Shown one piece after another: positions 16,251 to 17,647 of a stretch of DNA of 64,000 nucleotides; position 1 is the stretch's first letter; each line of letters opens with the position of its first letter. Location of the stretch: contig NZ_LNXV01000033.1 in NCBI RefSeq assembly GCF_001467025.1, forward strand, positions 160,973-224,972, given 5' to 3'. The notes under the pieces are model-generated. The model saw only the letters and a list, made by a program, of their open reading frames with translations, ran no database searches and was not told where the DNA came from. This stretch comes from Legionella brunensis (GTDB lineage Bacteria; Pseudomonadota; Gammaproteobacteria; Legionellales; Legionellaceae). The position numbers and the translations under genes were made by a program.

Positions 16251-17647
16251 ATGAAACCATCGTTGCAGCTGAATATCAGTCAACAATTAACACTTACACC
16301 ACAACTTCAGCAAGCTATTCGTCTCTTACAATTATCTACCCTAGATTTACAGCAAGAGATTCAACAAGTTGTCGAATCAAATCCGATGCTTGAAGTAACA
16401 ACTAATGAAGAGAAAGAAGAACCTAGACTAGAAGAGCCAAAACAAAATCAGGAGGACTTTACCGATTTTCAATGGGCTCAGCTTTACTCCACCCAAAGCA
16501 AAAGAACCAATTTTGATGATCTCGATTTTAATTATGAAAATTTACACTGCACGACAACTAATCTCCAGGATCATCTGCGCTGGCAATTAGACTTAACCCC
16601 AATGAGCGATGTAGACCGTGTTATTGCTACAGCCATTATTGATGCTATCGATGATGACGGCTTCCTAACGCTTTCCATGTCCGAATTGCATTCTAGTCTG
16701 GATAGTGAAGCACATCCACTTGATCTTGAAGAGATAGAAGCTGTACGTCACCGAGTTCAACATTTTGATCCCGTTGGCTGTGCTTCGAATAATTTAGCTG
16801 AAACTTTATTACTCCAATTGGAGCAATTACCCGATACCAATGGTGACATTGCGTTAACGAAACGAATTATCCGTGAAGATATCGAATTGCTTGGGCAGCA
16901 TAATTATCGCCAGCTCATGAAAAACCACCAAGTTAATGAATCAACTCTTGATAGAGTGCTACAAATTATTCAACGTCTCAATCCTAAGCCTGGTAATTTG
17001 ATTCAACAAAGCACGACTGAATACATCATCCCTGACGTCATTGTTAAAAAAATTGATGGGGTATGGGAAGTAGCACTCAATCAAAACACTCTACCACGTC
17101 TGAGCATTAACACTCATTATGCATCTCTTATTCAACGAGCAGATAATAGTGCTGATAATCAATTTTTAAAAAATAATTTGCAAGAAGCACGCTGGTTTCT
17201 CAAAAGCATCCAAAGTCGCCAAGAGACTTTGCTAAAAGTTGCTCAATGCATTGTTGAATATCAACAGGATTTTCTAGAACATGGTGACGAAGCCATGAAG
17301 CCACTTATCCTTAATGATGTTGCCCTGGCTCTCGATATGCATGAATCAACGATTTCACGAGTAACAACACAAAAATTCATGCATACCCCTCGTGGTGTAT
17401 TTGAGTTAAAATATTTCTTTTCAAGTCATGTCGCTACAATTACTGGTGGAGAATGCTCCTCAACCGCGATTCGAGCAGTAATCAAAAAATTAATTGCCGC
17501 AGAGAACCGAAAAAACCCTTGAGTGACAGTAAGATTGCACAACTCATTGGAGAACAAGGTATTCAAGTTGCTCGCAGAACAGTGGCTAAATACCGCGAAG
17601 CCATGGGCATCGCCCCCTCCAATGAACGCAAAACAATTCGTAGTTAG
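16251..17647 (+). pseudogene. rpoN: RNA polymerase sigma-54 factor, interrupted by a -1 frameshift near the C-terminus
   Basis: The start at 16251 (MKPSLQLNISQQLTLTPQLQ, SD AGAGGA) is preferred over the GTG at 16230. Region I (Gln-rich LQLSTLDLQQEIQQ) and the core-binding and DNA-binding domains up to FELKYFFSSHV..GGECSSTAIRAVIKKLIAAEN are normal. The frame then stops at 17520-17522. The remaining residues, PLSDSKIAQLIGEQGIQVARRTVAKYREAMGI, are intact one frame back and end at 17647. The break is at six A's (17510-17515) in CGA AAA AAC. The truncated product would lack the RpoN box (17570-17599), which reads the -24 promoter element. Joined, the protein would be about 465 residues, the normal size. 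Causes: true mutation, sequencing error at the A-run, or ribosomal slippage at A AAA AAC. Confidence 0.93.

What the first reader, a model, noticed from the sequence alone, without database searches (positions are those of the whole stretch)
16251..17647. rpoN is split by a -1 frameshift at an A AAA AAC heptamer, just before the -24-recognition helix
The sequence shows 430 codons of sigma-54 ending at TGA, then 42 more codons of clear RpoN C-terminus one frame back. The junction is CGA AAA AAC CCT TGA, which reads exactly as the heptamer A AAA AAC in the zero frame. One extra A would restore the usual protein. So it may be a real loss of sigma-54 (which in Legionella serves flagellar and other genes), a sequencing error at a homopolymer, or programmed slippage yielding two forms: a truncated factor lacking the RpoN box and a full one. 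The last would be new for sigma-54.
Basis: partly seen in the sequence, partly recalled or inferred. Interest (0 to 1): 0.8.

Follow-up and report, generated by a model that had tools for sequence, protein, structure and literature searches.

The report
Frame-broken sigma-54 gene in a Legionella
The gene for sigma-54, a factor that switches on flagellar and other genes, is broken near its end in this one Legionella-type genome, and a second gene of the same operon is broken too, so it looks like a recent gene loss or an assembly fault rather than a new way of making two proteins from one gene.

Summary
rpoN reads in frame 0 from ATG 16251 to TGA 17520-17522; the RpoN-box end follows one frame back (17516-17644); A AAA AAC (17510-17516) is in zero frame. 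It is the only rpoN in the genome. The break is a singleton: 59 of 64 relative loci read both pieces in one frame at constant spacing; the other five (two genomes) are broken elsewhere. Programmed slippage is not supported: no conserved site, no unusual fold in stimulator range, and the same in-frame heptamer occurs 33 times in 386 ORFs of this genome. New: npr (HPr), 1.4 kb downstream in the same operon, is also frame-broken, at a non-slippery site, and only here. Among 480 genes compared with the nearest relative, these two are the only clean single breaks. The C-terminal codons and the sigma-54 regulon look preserved. Best reading: very recent loss of function in the rpoN-hpf-ptsN-npr operon (0.5). 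Close rival: a local assembly fault (0.4). Reads would decide.

The parts
16251..17522 (+). rpoN, frame-0 part: 423 codons and TGA (activator-binding, core-binding and most of the DNA-binding domain)
17510..17516 (+). A AAA AAC heptamer in zero frame at the frame change
   Evidence: conserved flanking codons in relatives
17516..17647 (+). rpoN C-terminal part one frame back, with the RpoN box from about 17570
17523..17540 (+). weak hairpin (-2.1 kcal/mol) 6 nt after the heptamer, not exceptional
17544..17626 (+). strong predicted RNA fold inside the C-terminal part, main stem 27 nt past the heptamer (17517-17626 as a whole z -3.6)
17666..17959 (+). hpf-type gene, intact
18196..18666 (+). ptsN-type gene, intact
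18810..18959 (+). npr (HPr) first part, frame ends at 18957-18959
18962..19078 (+). npr (HPr) second part, in another frame

Best explanation
A very recent one-base loss in the rpoN codons just before the conserved Pro-Leu-Ser-Asp put the end of the gene out of frame. The main product should be a 423-residue sigma-54 that lacks the RpoN box, which reads the -24 element, so sigma-54 promoters should go unread (inferred from the domain map, not shown). npr in the same operon carries a second single break. The likeliest cause is loss of function of this regulatory operon in one strain or culture. A little full-length protein may still arise by unprogrammed -1 slippage at the heptamer (inferred). 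Shown: both breaks in the held sequence, their singleton status, intact relatives. Inferred: that the breaks exist in the cell, their order, their cause and the effect on transcription.
For: One rpoN, in two frames. 59 of 64 relative loci intact with constant spacing, none broken here. npr broken in this genome alone: 31 of 31 relative loci with both pieces are intact and no other of the 133 matching family genomes has it split. The assembly is not generally error-prone: 2 clean breaks in 480 genes, and about 1,215 homopolymer runs of six or more in the compared stretches with one at a break. Neighbouring hpf and ptsN intact. Precedents: rpoN loss is selected in C. jejuni culture, with indels in short A/T runs of flagellar genes and rpoN (PMC7677240, passages); frameshifted rpoN in Neisseria (PMC6755734, passages).
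Against: No sign of relaxed selection: the C part is 43 of 43 residues identical to the nearest relative over 19 synonymous differences, and the N part looks like that of intact genes. The regulon is still there. Two indels without accompanying decay, 1.4 kb apart, also fit a local assembly fault. One survey expects singleton breaks with intact homologues to be mostly sequencing errors (PMC3711429, passages).
Confidence: 0.5

Rival explanations
1. Local sequencing or assembly fault: rpoN and npr are intact in the living strain and this stretch of the contig carries two single-base errors.
For: Both breaks are singletons, 1.4 kb apart, where about 0.6% would be expected by chance for two random places in 484 kb of compared coding sequence (arithmetic, judged after the fact). 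No decay around them. The regulon is kept. Survey expectation for such singletons (PMC3711429, passages). One hybrid 454/Illumina assembly of L. brunensis exists (PMC5025774, passages), though whether it is this one is unknown.
Against: No N run in the window, and the nearest one listed upstream on the contig is about 50 kb from rpoN. The npr break is not in a long homopolymer. Only one of about 1,215 runs of six or more in the compared stretches is at a break, so there is no general homopolymer fault.
Confidence: 0.4
2. Programmed -1 frameshifting at A AAA AAC makes two functional forms of sigma-54, one without and one with the RpoN box.
For: Heptamer in zero frame, stop right after it, C part under full purifying constraint. 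A weak hairpin starts 6 nt after the heptamer and a strong fold further on. One proven insertion-sequence case of A_AAA_AAC has no established stimulator (PMC4066793, passages).
Against: Not conserved: 0 of 64 relative loci have it. Windows of 42 to 81 nt after the heptamer fold like shuffles. The hairpin is -2.1 kcal/mol and relatives with intact genes have similar ones. The strong fold begins 27 nt away and an intact relative (L014) has one as strong. 33 in-frame copies of the heptamer in 386 ORFs. In E. coli A_AAA_AAC is much less shift-prone than A_AAA_AAG (PMC5009743, passages). It does not explain npr.
Confidence: 0.03
3. Phase variation: the run of A changes length and switches sigma-54 off and on.
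For: A/T runs in flagellar genes, rpoN included, vary in C. jejuni (PMC7677240, passages).
Against: The run is short (6 A) and is not conserved: 3 to 7 A at the same codons in 30 relative loci. No other genome is broken here. It does not explain npr.
Confidence: 0.03

Closest known systems
Frameshifted rpoN of Neisseria (gonococcal rpoN-like sequence; meningococcal 8013-type allele), PMC6755734 (passages)
   Same: A frameshift removes the RpoN box from sigma-54.
   Different: There the HTH is lost too and the frameshift allele recurs (17 of 290 isolates); here only the RpoN-box end is out of frame and it is a single genome.
rpoN loss in evolved Campylobacter jejuni, PMC7677240 (passages)
   Same: Loss of sigma-54 function, including an indel in a short A/T run.
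   Different: Mostly large deletions, shown by resequencing of populations; no reads are held here.
Bacterial -1 frameshift genes using A_AAA_AAN heptamers (dnaX; insertion sequences), PMC4066793 and PMC5009743 (passages)
   Same: X_XXY_YYZ heptamer in zero frame, followed closely by a stop.
   Different: No conservation and no notable structure in the spacer range; the heptamer is what a one-base shortfall in Lys-Lys-Pro codons leaves behind.
'Savior' or compensated indels, PMC5009743 (passages)
   Same: An indel in a run where low-level slippage could still make some full-length product.
   Different: No product or function shown here.

Membership tests
Programmed -1 ribosomal frameshift gene | Slippery X_XXY_YYZ heptamer in zero frame | tested here: met
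   but 33 such copies in 386 ORFs
Programmed -1 ribosomal frameshift gene | Frameshift site conserved among homologues (criterion in PMC3711429) | tested here: not met
   0 of 64 relative loci; 48 of 48 loci outside the family read through as one ORF
Programmed -1 ribosomal frameshift gene | Stimulatory structure at a short spacer (1-15 nt, PMC3500957) | tested here: inconclusive
   Only a -2.1 kcal/mol hairpin 6 nt away; windows no better than shuffles. Pseudoknots not modelled
Programmed -1 ribosomal frameshift gene | Trans-frame product made and used | not testable with these tools
   no proteome data held
Sigma-54 (RpoN) | Sigma54_DBD domain | tested here: met
   in two pieces and two frames
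Sigma-54 (RpoN) | RpoN box in the same frame as the rest | tested here: not met
Frameshifted loss-of-function allele (pseudogene) | Intact homologues in close relatives, break private to one genome | tested here: met
   for genomes without a fetched locus inferred from frame lengths
Frameshifted loss-of-function allele (pseudogene) | Relaxed selection after the break | tested here: not met
   a very recent break would not show it
Frameshifted loss-of-function allele (pseudogene) | Indel present in the DNA of the organism (read support) | not testable with these tools
   no reads held

The most novel reading that the evidence does not exclude
A self-suppressing allele. Most Legionella rpoN genes examined have Lys-Lys-Pro codons here, so a one-base shortfall at this place by itself leaves A AAA AAC in zero frame with the conserved RpoN box behind it. 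Ordinary, unprogrammed -1 slippage could then still make a small share of full-length sigma-54. The genome would have moved to low-dose sigma-54, plus loss of the HPr branch, without losing the regulon, which would explain why flagellar genes, activators and -24/-12-like sites are untouched. The class ('savior' or compensated indels) is named in PMC5009743 (passages); the searches listed no such case for sigma-54.
Probability: 0.06. Interest if true: 0.6.

Novelty: new member of a known kind. Interest (0 to 1): 0.2.

Why it matters
If the breaks are real, this is a Legionella genome caught just after losing sigma-54 and the HPr phosphocarrier while the regulon is still in place, a natural before-and-after case for what sigma-54 does in the genus. 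If they are errors, two genes of one operon look like pseudogenes when they are not. Either way the heptamer should not be counted as a recoding site on present evidence.

Tried and rejected
Second rpoN copy: none found. Generally error-prone assembly: rejected; of 9 ORFs flagged among 480, two are at N gaps, two look like start-site differences, two like spurious ORFs, one is a regulator gene with several lesions, and two are rpoN and npr (the classes rest on my reading). The first, smaller surveys (86 ORFs; 283 ORFs) showed the same two. The reverse survey, of G001's own DNA, flagged 6 of 481, which I did not inspect one by one. Gene loss in G016 as a precedent: rejected; trmB, rpoN, HPr and pssA all gave no match there, which reads as a missing or withheld block. 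Decay of the rest of the phosphotransferase system: not seen; two PEP-utilizer proteins are in unbroken frames. Reinitiation at the TTG overlapping the TGA (17519-17521): possible on paper, no ribosome-binding run seen by eye, not tested. Joint absence of rpoN and HPr across the family as support for operon loss: not supported; HPr matches in 133 of 143 genomes and rpoN in 95 of 143. The -24/-12 count is weak evidence: G016, with no rpoN found, has 4 sites too, and its control has 1.

Full report
WHAT IS THERE. In frame 0, rpoN starts at ATG 16251 and meets TGA at 17520-17522 after 423 codons; the finding's 430 counts from an upstream GTG at 16230. The codons before the stop are CGA AAA AAC CCT, so A AAA AAC at 17510-17516 is a zero-frame heptamer as reported. 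The usual sigma-54 end follows one frame back at 17516-17644 and holds the RpoN box. The Pfam sigma-54 DNA-binding profile finds the gene in two pieces in this genome. Of the 21 other genus genomes, 20 have one match over positions 2-159 (G018 with a TAA inside) and G016 has only a weak 23-bit match. The N part finds one place in the genome.

WHOSE GENOME. The nearest named relatives are Legionella. The nearest held genome, G001, has a contig of 3,477,232 bases, the length given for L. cardiaca H63T (PMC10353460, start of abstract), and that paper calls L. brunensis the closest relative of L. cardiaca (passages). So the window is probably L. brunensis or something very near it. This is an inference.

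IS THE BREAK CONSERVED? No. With the pieces searched apart, 59 of 64 relative loci carry both in one frame, 12 nt apart in each; here the spacing is 11. The five misses are two genomes: a MAG (L013 = L027) with a TAA at about residue 388, and one genome (G021, L021-L023, 87% complete) whose N part is spread over two frames further upstream. All 48 loci outside the family (L056-L103) read as one ORF of 490-525 codons past the junction. In the family search 95 of 143 genomes match the N part. Own has a frame of 452 codons; the others have 466 or more, except G021, G082 and G099, which match only in parts. For genomes without a fetched locus this rests on frame lengths, and stops reported inside those matches were not inspected. 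Which base is affected is not stated, by rule; intact copies exist throughout the genus.

IS IT OLD? No sign of it. The C part is 43 of 43 residues identical to G001 over 19 synonymous differences. The N part has pN/pS 0.06 against G001, where intact pairs have 0.05 to 0.125, and two residues unique to it, where twelve relatives have 0 to 13. The regulon looks untouched: two strong sigma-54 activator domains in unbroken frames and two flagellin-type genes. There are six -24/-12-like sites against none in the reversed control; two of them lie 9.4 and 5.7 kb before the weaker flagellin-type gene (flgL-like, my label), as in G002 and G008. The site count is weak evidence, since G016, with no rpoN found, has four (control one). 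Synonymous sites are near saturation against G001, so 'recent' means only much younger than the species split.

A SECOND BREAK. When genes of G001 were compared with 864 kb of this genome, 480 ORFs (161,443 codons) could be judged and nine were flagged. Two are at N gaps, two look like start-site differences, two like spurious ORFs and one is a regulator gene with several lesions. The two left are rpoN and the HPr gene npr, broken between about 18951 and 18961, 1.4 kb further on in the same rpoN-hpf-ptsN-npr row. In 31 of 34 relative loci both npr pieces were found, and in all 31 they share a frame at spacing 12; here it is 11. Of 143 family genomes 133 match HPr; own is the only one split into two part-length matches, while one other (G113) has a TAA near its end. 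There is no slippery heptamer at the npr break. hpf and ptsN between them are intact. Two random breaks would lie this close with a chance of about 0.6% (simple arithmetic, judged after the fact).

WHAT THIS DOES TO THE SLIPPAGE IDEA. The site is not conserved. The 60 and 81 nt tracts after the heptamer fold no better than shuffles (z +0.4 and -0.3; shorter windows agree). A hairpin 6 nt after the heptamer is weak (-2.1 kcal/mol), and most of 30 intact relative loci form something of that order. The strong fold of 17517-17626 (z -3.6; a similar tract -3.8) has its main stem 27 nt past the heptamer and an equal in L014 (z -3.8), whose gene is intact. In-frame A AAA AAC occurs 33 times in 29 of 386 ORFs. 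Most Legionella relatives have Lys-Lys-Pro at the junction, so a one-base shortfall there by itself leaves such a heptamer. Against my view: one proven insertion-sequence case of A_AAA_AAC has no established stimulator (PMC4066793, passages), and pseudoknots were not modelled. For it: in E. [quoted passage not shown]

REAL OR ARTEFACT? The assembly is not generally poor: about 1,215 runs of six or more lie in the compared stretches and one is at a break. That favours a real event, as does C. jejuni, where rpoN is lost under selection in culture, with indels in short A/T runs among the changes (PMC7677240, passages). Against it stand the closeness of the two breaks without any other decay, and the expectation of a large survey that singleton breaks with intact homologues are mostly sequencing errors (PMC3711429, passages). 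I give 0.5 to a real recent loss and 0.4 to a local fault. Only reads or sister strains can decide.

COMPARISON WITH THE KNOWN. A frameshifted sigma-54 without the RpoN box is known in Neisseria (PMC6755734, passages), so even a real loss is a new member of a known kind. In L. pneumophila FleQ acts on flagellar genes through RpoN-dependent and RpoN-independent paths (PMC5655016, passages), and PtsN, PtsO or both are missing in some Legionella species (PMC13104625, passages). Searches for rpoN, frameshift, sigma-54 and Legionella together (two papers, seen as listing) and for rpoN with programmed ribosomal frameshifting (none) showed nothing on this.

Noticed in passing
window 18810-19078: npr (HPr) is split into two frames in this genome only; no slippery heptamer at the break.
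   Followed up: yes
L013 and L027, residue about 388 of rpoN: A MAG of the genus (G018) has an in-frame TAA in rpoN.
   Followed up: partly
L021-L023 (G021): rpoN of a low-quality genome of the genus is spread over two frames in its N part.
   Followed up: no
G016 (search only): No match for trmB, rpoN, HPr or pssA although listed as 100% complete: a missing or withheld block rather than gene loss.
   Followed up: partly
L208 (G000:C29:117162-117848): A regulator-type gene with several lesions, a decayed gene elsewhere in this genome.
   Followed up: no
window 17517-17626: The RpoN-box coding stretch has a strong predicted RNA fold here and in L014, not in most relatives tested.
   Followed up: partly
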